In this document: one piece after another, positions 34,518-51,871 of the stretch
Position numbering within the stretch: the stretch's first letter is position 1
Layout: each line of letters starts with the position of its first letter
Assembly: GCA_025055115.1 (NCBI GenBank)
Contig: JANWYJ010000007.1
Coordinates: 1-64,000 of the forward strand
From: Gemmata sp.
GTDB lineage: Bacteria > Planctomycetota > Planctomycetia > Gemmatales > Gemmataceae
Direction: 5' to 3'
Length of the DNA: 64,000 nt
Made by a program: the position numbers and the translations under genes
Notes under the pieces: generated by a model
Told to the model about the DNA's origin: nothing
Database searches by the model: none
The model's input: only the letters and a program-made list of their open reading frames with translations

Positions 34518-35078
34518 AAAAGATCCCAGCCGAACAAAGGCGCCACCAGTGGCCAGCCGAACCGTGACTGACCCACAAATGACCGGAACATCGCCACCAC
34601 CCGGCACCACCGGCCCCCCGCGCCGCGAAGGCGATCCGCGCAACCCGGCCTGCTGTGGGGTTGCCGGTTGGGCGCGGGATGCTCCTTGGCGGAAAATGAT
34701 CATCCTGGGCAGGCGATCCGCGCGGCCCGGCCTGCTGTGGGGTTGCCGGACGTCTTGTCTTAACAAGGGGCCTTCTTGACACGCCGCGAACGTGATCGGT
34801 GTGGCGAAGGTGATCGGTGCGGCTTGGCCCCACTTCCCGGCCCCCTCAGCGGGTGAGAAGCCTCCCGGTGAGAAGCCTCCCTTCGGGTGCTGTTGGCCGT
34901 TGCGGGACACCCCTGGCCGCGGATGGCCACGGCCACTATACTTTTCACTTTCCAACCCCCGCATTCTGGAACCGACTGATGCCCAGCTATTGGATGCTGG
35001 CGTGCAGGTCGGGCGGGGCCAACCTTCGGTTCCACCCATGGAACCTCATGTGCGCCGCCAAGCGGCCAAGGTATTGCC
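34518..35078. repeat. 561-bp repeat-bearing gap between ilvB and rplC
   Basis: A 39-bp sequence (aggcgatccgcg..., three mismatches) occurs at 34629-34667 and 34711-34749, 82 bp apart. An 18-bp tandem (gtgatcggtgtggcgaag type) lies at 34792-34827, and a 15-bp perfect tandem ggtgagaagcctccc at 34852-34881. The rplC promoter must be within or after this stretch; I could not place it. Confidence 0.85.
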
Positions 35079-45964: not shown

Positions 45965-47419
45965 ATGGAACCGTTTGTGCAGGAATTGGCCGAAGCCCGC
46001 CACGCCCAACAAGCCTGGGTGGCGGTACCTCTGTCGGAACGCCTCCGCTGTGTGCGGCAACTGCGTGGACTGATCGCGGAGCAAAGCGACGCCATCAGTG
46101 CGGCCATTGCCGCCGACATCGCCCGGCCAGCCACGGAAGTGGTGGCGACGGAGCTGTTGCCGACTGCCGCGGCCCTGAAGTTTCTGGAGAAGCGGGCCGC
46201 ACGGCTTTTGGCTGTGCGGCGTGTTTCGTGGTGGGACCAGCCAACGTGGCTCTTCGGTTGCCGCGATCGCGTTCATCGCCGGCCTTGGGGCGTCGTTGGG
46301 ATTATTGGCACGTGGAACTATCCGTTCTATTTGAATGTCGGGCCAATGGCGCAGGCCTTGGTTGCCGGCAACGCCGTGTTGTGGAAGCCGAGCGAGAACG
46401 CCGTGCGGATCGCCGAACTGACGGGGCAACTTTTTCGGGCCGCCGGTTTCCCCACAGAGCTGGTGCAAACCCTTCCTCCCACACGTGCAGCCGGTCCACG
46501 TCTGGCGGAAACCGATGTCGATTATCTCGTCTTCACAGGTTCCGATACCGTGGGCCGCCGCCTGGCGGCGCGGCTGGGCGAGCGGCTGATCCCGTCCACA
46601 CTCGAACTTTCCGGCTGCGATGCGATGGTGGTGTGTACCGATGCCAACCTGCCACTGGCGGCCCAAGCGGCCTGGTTTGCACTGGCGCTCAATCGCGGGC
46701 AGACATGTATCGCCGTGCGCCGCATTCTCGTGCCGCGTCAGCAGCTGGACGCCTTCTTGGCCGCATTCCAGCCGTTGATTCGCCCCGAACCGCTGGCGTT
46801 GGTCTTGGAAAGCCAAAAAACGCAGGCCGAACGGTTGATTGCCGATGCCGTCGCTCGCGGCGCCAGCGTCTGGCGCCCCCCGGCCGCGAAGCCCGCAGAG
46901 CCTGCGAACGCCCTGACGCCGACCATTCTGATGAATGTGCCCGCCGACGCAGCCATCTGCCGCGAAGCCTGCTTTGCCCCCGTGGCGGCAATCATTCCCT
47001 TCGATCAGATCGACGAGGCGATCGAAATCATCCGGCAATCACCGTTTGGGCTATCGGCGTCGATCTTCAGCGCGGACACCCAACACGCGCAGCAGCTGGC
47101 AGCACGCCTTCCTGCGGGCAGTGTGTGCATCAACGACATCCTTGCTCCCACCGCGCACCCGGCCACGCCTTTTGGCGGCCGAGGAGCCAGTGGCTGGGGC
47201 GTGACGCAAGGGCCAGAAGGGCTTCTGGCGATGACCGTGCCGCAAGTGGTCACGGTTCGCAGCGGTACCTGGCGTGTGCATTTCGACGAAGCCGCTCGGC
47301 CTGATCCGGCCACCGGGGAGATTCTCCGCGGCCTGCTCCGCTGGACGCATGCCCGCAGCTGGCGCGCGAAACTGCACGGCTTACGCCAACTCCTGCATGG
47401 CCTCCGCCGCAAGAAGTGA
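45965..47419 (+). CDS. Aldehyde dehydrogenase family protein
   Basis: The 484-residue protein oxidises an aldehyde to an acid with NAD(P)+. Signatures include GVVGIIGTWNYPFYLNVGPMAQALVAGNAVLWKPSE, YLVFTGSDTVGRRLAARL, the catalytic glutamate in PSTLELSGCDAMVVC, and the catalytic cysteine in NRGQTCIAVRRILV. TPFGGRGASGWGVTQGPEGLLAMT is near the C-terminus, which then carries about 50 basic residues (WRAKLHGLRQLLHGLRRKK). The short N-terminus and ELSG type resemble class 3-like ALDHs. No substrate can be read from its neighbours. Confidence 0.9.
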   Translation: MEPFVQELAEARHAQQAWVAVPLSERLRCVRQLRGLIAEQSDAISAAIAADIARPATEVVATELLPTAAALKFLEKRAARLLAVRRVSWWDQPTWLFGCRDRVHRRPWGVVGIIGTWNYPFYLNVGPMAQALVAGNAVLWKPSENAVRIAELTGQLFRAAGFPTELVQTLPPTRAAGPRLAETDVDYLVFTGSDTVGRRLAARLGERLIPSTLELSGCDAMVVCTDANLPLAAQAAWFALALNRGQTCIAVRRILVPRQQLDAFLAAFQPLIRPEPLALVLESQKTQAERLIADAVARGASVWRPPAAKPAEPANALTPTILMNVPADAAICREACFAPVAAIIPFDQIDEAIEIIRQSPFGLSASIFSADTQHAQQLAARLPAGSVCINDILAPTAHPATPFGGRGASGWGVTQGPEGLLAMTVPQVVTVRSGTWRVHFDEAARPDPATGEILRGLLRWTHARSWRAKLHGLRQLLHGLRRKK

Positions 47420-47433
47420 ACTTCCTCGGAGCG

Positions 47434-47540
47434 TCCCAGGAACTATTCGCCACCATGACGCCCCAGGAACTATTCCCACCATAACGCCCCAGGAACTATT
47501 CGCCACCATGACGCCCCAGGAGCTATTCGCCACCATGAAA
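47434..47540 (+). repeat. 27-bp tandem repeat duplicating a translation start region
   Basis: Four copies of the unit ccccaggaactattcgccac + catgacg run from about 47434 to 47540. ATGs of copies 1, 3 and 4 lie at 47455, 47508 and 47535; copy 2 has ATA and lacks one base. The 27-bp period keeps copies 2-4 in frame, while the ATG of copy 1 is shifted and stops after nine codons. Confidence 0.92.
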
Positions 47541-47969
47541 AGTCCAGCGCGCTTCGGCCGCGACGGCCGCCGCCGCCGTGCCTTGGATGAAGTCGCCGCG
47601 GCCATTCAATGGGCGCGGCGGAGCCGTCCGGTGCCGATTGTTTCAAGTGTGATGATCGACGAGCAATTCCCCGTGCCCATCGCACCACGACTCTGGCAGG
47701 CAGTCCAACAAGGATTGGGCCTTACGCTGCCGGCGTTGGAATTCTCGGGTGGGCATTGGTTTTTGCCCGAGGGTTTCACCACCATTTGGGATGTGGTGGA
47801 CGCGGCGTTGCGCGCTGGTCGGGATTGGCTGCCGCCCCAATTTGGTACCGTGGCCGAGTGGCGCAATGCCCAGATTTTCGCCGCGGTACGGCAGTGTTTC
47901 GCTAGCGAAGCTGGAGTCCCGCCGCAGGCTGTAGACCGCGATACCCGGTTGAGTGATCTGTTCCGGTGA
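47535..47969 (+). CDS. Hypothetical protein with repeated start region
   Basis: The body of the gene begins at ATG 47535 (144 residues); initiation at ATG 47508 would add MTPQELFAT. The sequence starts basic (MKSPARFGRDGRRRRALDE), continues with FPVPIAPRLWQAVQQGLGLTLPALEFSGGHWFLPEGFTTIWD, and ends AAVRQCFASEAGVPPQAVDRDTRLSDLF. That end recalls the first half of an acyl-carrier-protein helix pattern, but the stop comes before any phosphopantetheine serine. Its stop is within a 17-bp duplication shared with dgkA. I do not recognise the family. Confidence 0.65.
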   Translation: MKSPARFGRDGRRRRALDEVAAAIQWARRSRPVPIVSSVMIDEQFPVPIAPRLWQAVQQGLGLTLPALEFSGGHWFLPEGFTTIWDVVDAALRAGRDWLPPQFGTVAEWRNAQIFAAVRQCFASEAGVPPQAVDRDTRLSDLFR

Positions 47970-47996
47970 GCGTGTTATGCCGGTGAGCGTGTTATG
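47963..47996. repeat. 17-bp perfect tandem repeat carrying both stop codons of convergent genes
   Basis: ccggtgagcgtgttatg at 47963-47979 and 47980-47996. Each copy holds a plus-strand TGA (47967, 47984) and a minus-strand TAA (47975, 47992). The left gene uses the first TGA and dgkA uses the second TAA, so each gene has a spare copy of its stop motif. Confidence 0.92.
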
Positions 47997-48417
47997 CGGG
48001 TAGCAGATGGAGCAGCAAGAGGATTTTGCGGCCGAAGATGAGGCCACCGATGGCGGCCGCCGTCAGGGCAGCGACGAGAACAGCACCGGCGGCAATGTCG
48101 AGGCAACCGTAGACGCGATCACGCGCTTCAGCTTCCAAACCGCGGAAAAGGGTTTCTACCGCGCTATTGAACAATTCCGCCGTCAGAACCAGGCCGATGC
48201 AACCAATGACCACGCACCATTCCCACAATTCGCATTCCAATACAATCGCCAGCATCAGGGCCAAAATGGCGAAGAAGAAATGCACGGCGAAGCTGGAGTG
48301 ACCGCGCACACCCCGTTTGACCCCGCGAAACGCTTCGCGGAACTTATCCCGCCAGTAGCGGGGCTGGCGGTGGTGCCGATGCGTGCGCTGGCTGGACTGC
48401 GGCTGTTCACTGGTCAC
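47992..48417 (-). CDS. dgkA: Diacylglycerol/undecaprenol kinase
   Basis: I start at GTG 48417 because AGGAGG lies six bases upstream; the ORF track uses TTG 48441. The 141-residue product has a basic N-terminus and RDKFREAFRGVKRG, then three membrane segments (FAVHFFFAILALMLAIVLE, WCVVIGCIGLVLTAELFNSAVETL and GCLDIAAGAVLVAALTAAAIGG). AELFNSAVETLFRGLEAEARDRVYGCLDIAAG is the DgkA active-site region with its conserved N and E residues. Family members phosphorylate undecaprenol or diacylglycerol for envelope synthesis. Convergent with the hypothetical gene to its left. Confidence 0.9.
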   Translation of the reverse strand: MTSEQPQSSQRTHRHHRQPRYWRDKFREAFRGVKRGVRGHSSFAVHFFFAILALMLAIVLECELWEWCVVIGCIGLVLTAELFNSAVETLFRGLEAEARDRVYGCLDIAAGAVLVAALTAAAIGGLIFGRKILLLLHLLPA

Positions 48418-49882: not shown

Positions 49883-50418
49883 CCCGTCGAGCGCTCAGCG
49901 GTGACGGCGGTCATCATCCTTGCGGCCCAAGTGCTGCTGGCCCGCTGGGTTCCCGGGCCATCCGCAGAAGTCAGGGGCCGTACCACCCTCTTTTCGGCCC
50001 AAGTGCCGTCGTGTTGGGGAAATGGCGATTTTGTCGAGAGAATGTCAAGGGGGGCGCAATATTCCGTGTGAATAGGTGGATAGAACGTCGGCCCTCGTTG
50101 GGCTGTCGCGCCAAAGTGCAGGTCGCTATTGAACATATGAATACTCATGGCGTTCTCGTGGCGTTGGCACAATGTTTCCCCCAGAAAGTTTCCCCCCCCG
50201 AACTGGCACGCCAGTCGAACGCGATGAAAATCGACAGCCCAACGGCTTCCCAAAATCCCCACGGGCCATAATCACGCTCCGCAATGACCCCTGGTCGGAC
50301 CTATCACGACCATTCTGTCGGACCTATCACGACCATTCTGCTATAATGAACAGGTCCGCGATGATTATGAGCAGAGCCGCGTTTCACCCCAGTTTGGACT
50401 TCAACCTTCGCACGCTGC
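49883..50418 (+). promoter_or_regulatory. 536-bp hemW upstream region with extended -10 and repeats
   Basis: TGcTATAAT at 50339-50347 is a perfect extended -10, about 70 bp before the hemW start. Directly upstream, tcggacctatcacgaccatt (+ ctg) is repeated as a perfect 23-bp tandem (50295-50317, 50318-50340), filling the -35 zone. Earlier, cggcccaagtgc occurs at 49923 and 49995 (72 bp apart). No gene is evident. Confidence 0.6.
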
Positions 50419-51720
50419 ATGGCGTCTTTCGAACCGATCACCACTTCTTTCGAACCGATCACCACTTCGGCGCGCGGCTGGGGGGAACCCGCCACGGCGT
50501 ACATTCATGTCCCCTTTTGTGCCCATCACTGCGGATATTGTGATTTTGCCGTTTCCACCGGAACCGATCATCTCATCGACCTGTACATTGAAGCCCTCGG
50601 AGCCGAACTGGCCACACTCGGTCAGCCGCGGGGGGTGGAGAGTCTCTTTGTGGGCGGCGGCACGCCGACTCATCTTTCCGCAGCACAACTGGAACGCTTA
50701 CTTGCACTTGTCACGCACTGGCTACCGTGGCGGCCCACTTCCGCCGCCACGCTCCACCGGCCAGCCGTCGCCGCCGGAACAGGCGCTCAGACCGCCGCGC
50801 CGCCGCCCACAGCGGCCGAACACAAACCGGAATTCTCCATCCACAAACGGGAATTCTCGATCGAAGCCAACCCGGATTCTCTGACGGAGGAGAAAGCGGC
50901 CATCATGGCCGCCTTCGGAGTGAATCGCGTCAGCATCGGCGTGCAGTCGTTCCAACCACGGTTGTTGCAGGCTCTGGATCGGCAGCATCGGCCCGACCAG
51001 GTCGCCCCGGCGGTGGCGGCAGCCCGCCGGCACATTCCGGTGGTGTCGCTCGACTTGATCTTCGCCGTCCCCGGCTCCACACTGGCCGACTGGCAAGCGG
51101 ATATCGCAGCGGCACTCGATTGCGCACCCGAACATATTTCCACTTATGGTCTGACCTACGAAAAAGGCACACCGCTGTGGAAACGACGTCATCGCGGCGC
51201 CATCACGCCTGTGCCGGAAGACGACGAACTGGCGATGTACGAATACGCGATCGACCGCCTGACCGCGGCCGGCTACGAACATTACGAAATTTCCAACTTC
51301 GCCCGACCGGGTTTTCGCTGTCGTCACAATGAGCGTTATTGGGCCAACGAACCGTACTACGGTTTTGGTGTGGGCGCGGCCCGGTACGTTCAGGGTGTCC
51401 GCGAACTCAATATCCGCAATACACAGCTGTACATTCGCCGGGCCTTGGCCGGCGAACCGACGACCTTTCAGCGGGAAGAACTGCCGCCGCGGCAACGGGC
51501 TTTTGAAACGATCGCCACCCAGCTCCGCCGCGCAGATGGCATCGACCGCATCGGCTTTCGTGACCAAACCGGCTTTGACTTGGATGAACTGGCGTCTACA
51601 GTGATTGCACGTTTAGAAGACTATGGCATTGTGGACGATGATGGCCGCCGGGTGCGGTTGACACGCCGTGGCCGTTGCGTGGCGGATGCGGCCATTGCCG
51701 AGTTTCTCAAGGAAGTGTAG
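50419..51720 (+). CDS. hemW: Radical SAM protein, HemW (heme chaperone) family
   Basis: The 433-residue protein carries YIHVPFCAHHCGYCDFAVSTG, a CxxxCxxCxF radical-SAM site typical of HemW rather than the oxygen-independent coproporphyrinogen oxidase HemN. VESLFVGGGTPTHLSAAQLERLL, SIEANPDSLTEEK, FGVNRVSIGVQSFQPRLLQALDRQH and NERYWANEPYYGFGVGAARY are all standard. HemW is a heme carrier in studied bacteria. Two in-frame 21-bp duplications are present: the N-terminal FEPITTS repeat (50425-50466) and HKPEFSI/HKREFSI (50821-50862), the second inside an inserted Ala/Pro linker of about 45 residues. Confidence 0.93.
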   Translation: MASFEPITTSFEPITTSARGWGEPATAYIHVPFCAHHCGYCDFAVSTGTDHLIDLYIEALGAELATLGQPRGVESLFVGGGTPTHLSAAQLERLLALVTHWLPWRPTSAATLHRPAVAAGTGAQTAAPPPTAAEHKPEFSIHKREFSIEANPDSLTEEKAAIMAAFGVNRVSIGVQSFQPRLLQALDRQHRPDQVAPAVAAARRHIPVVSLDLIFAVPGSTLADWQADIAAALDCAPEHISTYGLTYEKGTPLWKRRHRGAITPVPEDDELAMYEYAIDRLTAAGYEHYEISNFARPGFRCRHNERYWANEPYYGFGVGAARYVQGVRELNIRNTQLYIRRALAGEPTTFQREELPPRQRAFETIATQLRRADGIDRIGFRDQTGFDLDELASTVIARLEDYGIVDDDGRRVRLTRRGRCVADAAIAEFLKEV

Positions 51721-51726
51721 ACGCCT

Positions 51727-51853
51727 AGGAACTGTCGACAGACGACAAGGAACTGTCGACAGACGACAAGGAGCTGTCAACGACAAGGAGCTGTCAACGA
51801 TAAGGAGCTATCAACGATAAGGAGCTGTCAACGATAAGGAGCTGTCAACGACA
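51727..51853 (+). repeat. Minisatellite of AAGGAG-bearing units after hemW
   Basis: Two identical 21-bp units (aggaactgtcgacagacgaca, 51727-51768) run into five 17-bp units of the type aggagctgtcaacgata (51769-51853). Each later unit contains AAGGAG, a Shine-Dalgarno-like string. It lies between convergent hemW and the HDOD gene. Confidence 0.93.
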
Positions 51854-51871
51854 AGGAGCCAGGCCCGTTTC

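What the first reader, a model, noticed from the sequence alone, without database searches (positions are those of the whole stretch)
47434..47540. Translation start region copied four times at 27-bp steps
Each copy carries an AGGAA/AGGAG string and an ATG (ATA in copy 2). Three ATGs remain; the first opens only nine codons. The gene could start at two or more in-frame sites, giving N-termini that differ by MTPQELFAT. The copies have diverged, so the array is not brand new.
Basis: partly seen in the sequence, partly recalled or inferred. Interest (0 to 1): 0.62.

Follow-up and report, generated by a model that had tools for sequence, protein, structure and literature searches.

The report
Genome-wide short DNA stutters, TopA-like borders
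The four-fold copied start region is real, but it is one of an estimated 1,400 or so short back-to-back DNA duplications scattered through this one Gemmata-type bacterium, and their edges carry the sequence mark of cutting by DNA topoisomerase I, which suggests an enzyme slip that keeps copying small pieces of the genome.

Summary
The array is confirmed: four copies with steps of 27, 26 and 27 bp (47432-47538). Three ATGs remain, two of them in frame with a small conserved gene. Four orthologues in the same genus have no array. They start at one ATG, 14 codons inside the window's reading frame, with Shine-Dalgarno spacing of 7-8 nt (12 nt here). So this is no conserved dual-start device. It is a local product of a genome-wide process. 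In 1.05 Mb sampled from this genome I found 312 short tandem arrays (29.6 per 100 kb), against 4.8 per 100 kb in the closest relative; exact duplications of 12 bp or more are about 20 times denser. They lie mainly between genes. Inside genes 57 of 65 keep the frame, against 61 of 190 between genes, so they are not assembly errors. Most are two copies of 15-25 bp, unique sequence, with almost no microhomology. No Ku gene was found in the genus. Borders carry C four bases 5' of the duplicated unit (94 of 178; p = 4e-11; repeated in later-fetched data): 5'-CNNN^, the cleavage rule of bacterial topoisomerase I. Best explanation: topoisomerase I cuts, the 3' end is extended 12-30 nt, and the enzyme reseals it. 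Why only this lineage is unknown.

The parts
47432..47458 (+). copy 1 of the unit (CGTCCCAGGAACTATTCGCCACCATGA), 27 bp
47459..47484 (+). copy 2, 26 bp (one G lost, ATG changed to ATA)
47485..47511 (+). copy 3, 27 bp, identical to copy 1 apart from T to C near its left end
47512..47538 (+). copy 4, 27 bp, carries AGGAG (47518-47522) and ATG 47535
47539..47542 (-). right border of the array; on the bottom strand 5'-CTTT^TCAT, i.e. C at -4 and T at +1 of the inferred cut, as in the genome-wide border motif
   Evidence: motif
47455..47484 (+). ATG of copy 1, nine codons and TAA
47508..47510 (+). in-frame ATG of copy 3
47535..47969 (+). small gene, no Pfam or NCBIfam match, with orthologues in at least four genomes of the genus; ATG of copy 4 is the likely start
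45965..47419 (+). upstream aldehyde dehydrogenase gene, ends 12 bp before the array
47963..48001 (+). another tandem duplication of the same class (17 bp, 2.3 copies) at the stop of the same gene
50425..50468 (+). in-frame 21-bp exact duplication at the N-terminus of hemW
50294..50340 (+). exact 23-bp duplication, same class
51763..51859 (+). 17-bp unit in 5.7 copies after hemW, same class
34852..34881 (+). exact 15-bp duplication with no microhomology

Best explanation
The array is one product of a lineage-specific process that makes short tandem duplications (about 12-30 bp, mostly two copies) throughout this Gemmata-type genome. Most likely the initiating lesion is cleavage by the genome's single type IA topoisomerase (TopA), which cuts 5'-CNNN^ and stays bound to the 5' end. 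The free 3' end is extended by a polymerase for about 12-30 nt by copying the opposite strand. TopA, or a ligase, then joins the extended 3' end to the original 5' end, so the stretch is present twice. A loop of that size would escape mismatch repair and be fixed at the next replication. Later unequal exchange or slippage raised this array to four copies. Shown: the array, its absence from relatives, the genome-wide excess, the filtering by selection, the lack of microhomology and the C(-4) border motif. Inferred: TopA as the cutter, the extension and resealing steps, and the use of the copied ATGs as starts.
For: Density: 312 arrays in 1,054 kb (29.6 per 100 kb; 14.0 at 95% identity or more), against 19 in 400 kb (4.8) in the closest relative G017. 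Exact duplications of 12 bp or more: 112 in 1,054 kb, 2 in 400 kb of G017, none in shuffles. Frame: inside genes 57 of 65 periods are multiples of three, between genes 61 of 190 (p = 2e-15). No microhomology: 0/1/2/3/4 bp in 55/20/11/9/3 against chance 56.6/29.3/11.8/4.5/1.4. Unique sequence: 101 of 106. Border motif: C at -4 on the strand entering the unit at 94 of 178 borders, expected 29%, p = 4e-11, the only position that stands out in the scan. It held in the near-exact set not used for the first sighting (p = 5e-6) and in 354 kb fetched afterwards (30 of 56, p = 1.6e-4); 1,000 random sets never exceeded 0.44 at any position. The C(-4) rule of bacterial topoisomerase I is stated in PMC7587558 and PMC2702276. 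Duplicated units are richer in A+T than their flanks (46% against 40%, p = 9e-6), as expected where DNA opens. One type IA topoisomerase per genome. No Ku found in the genus and no ATP-dependent ligase found in G000. The array's own right border reads CTTT^T.
Against: Only 53% of borders have C at -4, whereas all cleavage sites mapped in vitro in PMC2702276 had it; a one-cut model (77% at one border) fits slightly better than two independent cuts, by about 1 log unit only. TopA of this genome has no change at positions invariant in the rest of the genus, so nothing yet explains why this lineage and not G017. The array's left border lacks C at -4. No experiment shows TopA making such duplications. 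The extension and resealing steps are inference.
Confidence: 0.66

Rival explanations
1. Staggered double-strand breaks with both ends filled in and blunt-joined, as proposed for small tandem duplications in animals and plants.
For: Same outcome: small duplications with little microhomology. PMC8355091 describes this for eukaryotes and notes that it needs Ku80.
Against: No Ku found in any of 19 genomes of the genus; no ATP-dependent ligase found in this genome or G017. It does not by itself predict C at -4 unless the breaks come from a type IA topoisomerase.
Confidence: 0.12
2. Replication slippage or microhomology-driven misalignment, perhaps raised by loss of a repair or exonuclease gene.
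For: The usual cause of short tandem repeats; a small excess of 3-4 bp microhomology is seen.
Against: Microhomology is close to chance, there is a dip at 10-11 bp rather than a rise towards small sizes, and RecA, PolA 5' nuclease, MutS, RecJ and ExoVII are all present as in G017. It does not predict the -4 C.
Confidence: 0.1
3. A conserved translation device: copied ribosome-binding sites that give two N-termini or tune expression of the small gene.
For: Two in-frame ATGs each preceded by AGGAA/AGGAG.
Against: Four orthologues have one start, elsewhere, with better spacing and no array; hundreds of like arrays lie at places without start codons.
Confidence: 0.05
4. Assembly or sequencing artefact of a metagenome bin.
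For: The genome is in 100 contigs and looks like a bin.
Against: Artefacts ignore genes, yet at 95% identity or more 100 arrays lie wholly in 188 kb noncoding against 22 in 866 kb coding, and 20 of those 22 keep the frame; copies show a ladder of divergence; the -4 motif is not expected from an assembler.
Confidence: 0.03
5. Scars of an unknown mobile element that leaves 12-30 bp target-site duplications after clean excision.
For: Strand-symmetric border motif and no microhomology.
Against: The length varies widely, which known transposases do not do; 101 of 106 units are unique and no common element is seen at them.
Confidence: 0.04

Closest known systems
Topoisomerase-initiated small duplications (yeast Top2 de novo duplications, Stantial 2020, known here only by its title in the reference list of PMC13192990; phage T4 topoisomerase frameshifts, from memory)
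   Same: Topoisomerase cut, fill-in at the 3' end, tandem duplication without microhomology.
   Different: Those are type II enzymes with a fixed 4-base stagger and duplications of a few bases (size from memory), and in yeast they need end joining; here the motif is that of type IA, the size is 12-30 bp, and Ku was not found.
Small tandem duplications of animals and plants (PMC8355091)
   Same: Short (under 100 bp), mostly two copies, little microhomology.
   Different: They depend on Ku and Pol alpha-primase and carry no C(-4) border rule that I know of.
Bacterial VNTR and dispersed repeat arrays (for example those of genome G044)
   Same: Head-to-tail copies between genes.
   Different: In G044 several arrays share repeated units across contigs; here 101 of 106 units are unique sequence.
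Bacterial topoisomerase I cleavage sites (CNNN^)
   Same: C four bases 5' of the cut; place of the border; A+T-rich surroundings.
   Different: Only 53% of borders carry the C; cleavage itself was not measured.

Membership tests
Type IA topoisomerase-initiated duplication | C at -4 of the break on the cut strand | tested here: met
   94 of 178 borders, p = 4e-11, repeated in later-fetched data
Type IA topoisomerase-initiated duplication | A TopA with intact catalytic region is encoded | tested here: met
   single TopA, strong match, no odd substitutions
Type IA topoisomerase-initiated duplication | Altered or trapped TopA in this lineage only | tested here: inconclusive
   no unique change at genus-invariant columns; trapping not testable
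Type IA topoisomerase-initiated duplication | TopA cleavage complexes at the borders in vivo | not testable with these tools
   needs cleavage mapping
NHEJ fill-in duplication | Ku present | tested here: not met
   no match in 19 of 19 genomes; B. subtilis control positive
Slippage or microhomology duplication | Microhomology at the borders above chance | tested here: not met
   0-2 bp at chance level; slight excess at 3 bp or more
Dispersed-repeat or VNTR family | Same unit at several places | tested here: not met
   5 of 106 have a second place; the finding's unit occurs nowhere else in the genome at up to 2 mismatches
Conserved multiple-start array | Array or second start kept in orthologues | tested here: not met

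The most novel reading that the evidence does not exclude
A bacterial lineage in which topoisomerase I itself acts as a tandem-duplication machine: one cut, 12-30 nt of copying, and resealing by the same enzyme, with no double-strand break and no end-joining, feeding new sequence into intergenic regions and gene starts.
Probability: 0.4. Interest if true: 0.88.

Novelty: new variant of a known kind. Interest (0 to 1): 0.72.

Why it matters
Small tandem duplications are a main source of insertions in eukaryotes and are tied there to Ku-dependent joining. Here a bacterium without detectable Ku carries a dense, selection-filtered load of them with a topoisomerase I border mark. If right, TopA is a mutagen that writes new intergenic DNA, N-termini and start sites, and the border rule gives a sequence-only test that can be run on any genome.

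Tried and rejected
RNA structure in the array: none beyond shuffles. Promoter or terminator-like sites nearby: none. Clustering of intergenic arrays: as expected at random (17 against 17.4). Hairpins within units: none beyond shuffles. Loss of Ku, ATP ligase, PolA 5' nuclease, RecA, MutS, RecJ or ExoVII as a lineage-specific cause: same state in G017. Cas1: two loci here and one in G017, but Cas1 integration does not predict tandem duplications without an insert. Genome G044 as a second example: its arrays include shared repeat units. T at +1 tied to C at -4: not significant. One-cut against two-cut: not resolved. Papers on bacterial precedents: nothing found in the held library, which is not proof that none exists.

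Full report
Observation. The sequence at 47432-47538 holds four head-to-tail copies of CGYCCCAGGARCTATTCGCCACCATGA with steps of 27, 26 and 27 bp. Copy 2 lost one G and has ATA for ATG. ATGs remain at 47455 (nine codons, then TAA), 47508 and 47535; the last two are in frame with an ORF ending at 47969. The unit occurs nowhere else in the 4.93 Mb genome at up to two mismatches.

The gene. The ORF has no Pfam or NCBIfam match but has orthologues in four other genomes of the genus (74%, 45%, 45% and 40% identity; the closest, G017, is the same contig as CALDUT010000001.1, labelled uncultured Gemmata sp.). All four start at M-R-(A/V)-L-D-E-V with a purine-rich Shine-Dalgarno 7-8 nt before the ATG, and none has an array. 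In the window that ATG is CGC, and the reading frame runs 14 codons further upstream to ATG 47535, with AGGAG 12 nt before it. So the start moved into the array in this lineage. Use of two starts is possible but unshown.

The array is one of many. The window alone shows dozens of tandem arrays. In 1,054 kb sampled from the same genome there are 312 arrays with period 12-100 (29.6 per 100 kb), 252 of them with two copies. G017 has 19 in 400 kb (4.8 per 100 kb). Thirty-three other genomes of the genus, family, order or class, sampled lightly, average 9.8, mostly lower-identity, and two thirds of their periods are multiples of three. For exact duplications with a unit of 12 bp or more the contrast is 112 in 1,054 kb against 2 in 400 kb, with none in shuffled sequence. 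Scaled to 4.93 Mb, about 1,400 arrays are expected in this genome (extrapolation).

Real, and filtered by selection. At 95% identity or more, 100 arrays lie wholly in 188 kb of noncoding DNA and 22 in 866 kb of coding DNA; 20 of the 22 keep the frame, against 32 of 100 between genes. For all arrays the figures are 57 of 65 and 61 of 190 (p = 2e-15). Gene calls come from my own simple caller, which missed the small gene of this finding, so class counts are approximate. An assembler cannot know the frame. Over the syntenic 48 kb this genome is 1.6 kb longer than G017; recognised arrays explain about 0.45 kb of that.

Signature. Sizes start at about 12 bp, peak at 15-23 bp and tail off by 30-50 bp, with a dip at 10-11 bp. 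Microhomology at the borders is close to chance, with a slight excess at 3 bp or more. Units are unique sequence (101 of 106) and richer in A+T than their flanks (46% against 40%, p = 9e-6). Borders without microhomology, whose position is exact, show one strong strand-symmetric feature: C four bases 5' of the unit, read on the strand that enters the unit (53% against 29%, p = 4e-11). It was first seen in the exact set and then held in the near-exact set not used before (p = 5e-6) and in 354 kb fetched after the first sighting (54%, p = 1.6e-4). In 1,000 random sets no position passed 44%. The right border of the finding's own array reads 5'-CTTT^TCAT on the bottom strand.

Mechanism. 5'-CNNN^ is the cleavage rule of bacterial topoisomerase I and reverse gyrase (PMC7587558; PMC2702276, where every mapped site had C at -4). 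The enzyme stays bound to the 5' end at the cut. The polarity fits: the 3' end left at CNNN can be extended by copying the unit, and the bound 5' end, which begins with the unit, can then be joined to it, giving unit-unit. This needs no end joining, which fits the lack of detectable Ku in the genus and of ATP ligase in this genome. The joint counts of C at both, one or no border (21/51/16) fit one cut (19.6/53.9/14.6) a little better than two cuts (24.6/43.9/19.6), not decisively. The genome has a single type IA enzyme with no odd substitution. Why the process is strong here and not in G017 is open: trapping of TopA, its level, or loss of an adduct-removal step are candidates I could not test.

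Known systems. Small duplications after topoisomerase II trapping are reported in yeast (Stantial 2020, seen only as a reference title). Animal and plant small duplications are ascribed to filled-in staggered breaks and Ku-dependent joining (PMC8355091). I found no paper on type IA topoisomerase duplications or on such a load in a bacterium, in a library that lacks most subscription journals.

Verdict. Observation confirmed. Dual-start reading possible but not conserved. Best reading: a local product of a genome-wide tandem-duplication process with a topoisomerase I border signature.

Noticed in passing
window 47963-48001: A 17-bp tandem duplication sits exactly at the stop codon of the same small gene, so both ends of the gene carry arrays.
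   Followed up: yes
window 50425-50468 and 50821-50862: hemW carries two in-frame 21-bp duplications, one near its start and one inside.
   Followed up: partly
L020:49-100, L101:58-91, L102:16591-16624: The same 17-bp duplication CTCACTGGCTGATACAC lies at three contig ends, probably a dispersed element that breaks the assembly.
   Followed up: no
L119, L120, L122, L127 (genome G044, same class): A different genome has dense arrays of shared repeat units (for example ACCGGCGGCGTTGAGTCGGGTCG) near contig ends.
   Followed up: partly
G000:C86 and G000:C95: Two Cas1 genes in this genome, one in its closest relative G017.
   Followed up: no
window intergenic regions: Array density is higher between convergent genes (147 per 100 kb) than between tandem or divergent genes (84 and 82 per 100 kb), as expected if promoters are protected by selection.
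   Followed up: partly
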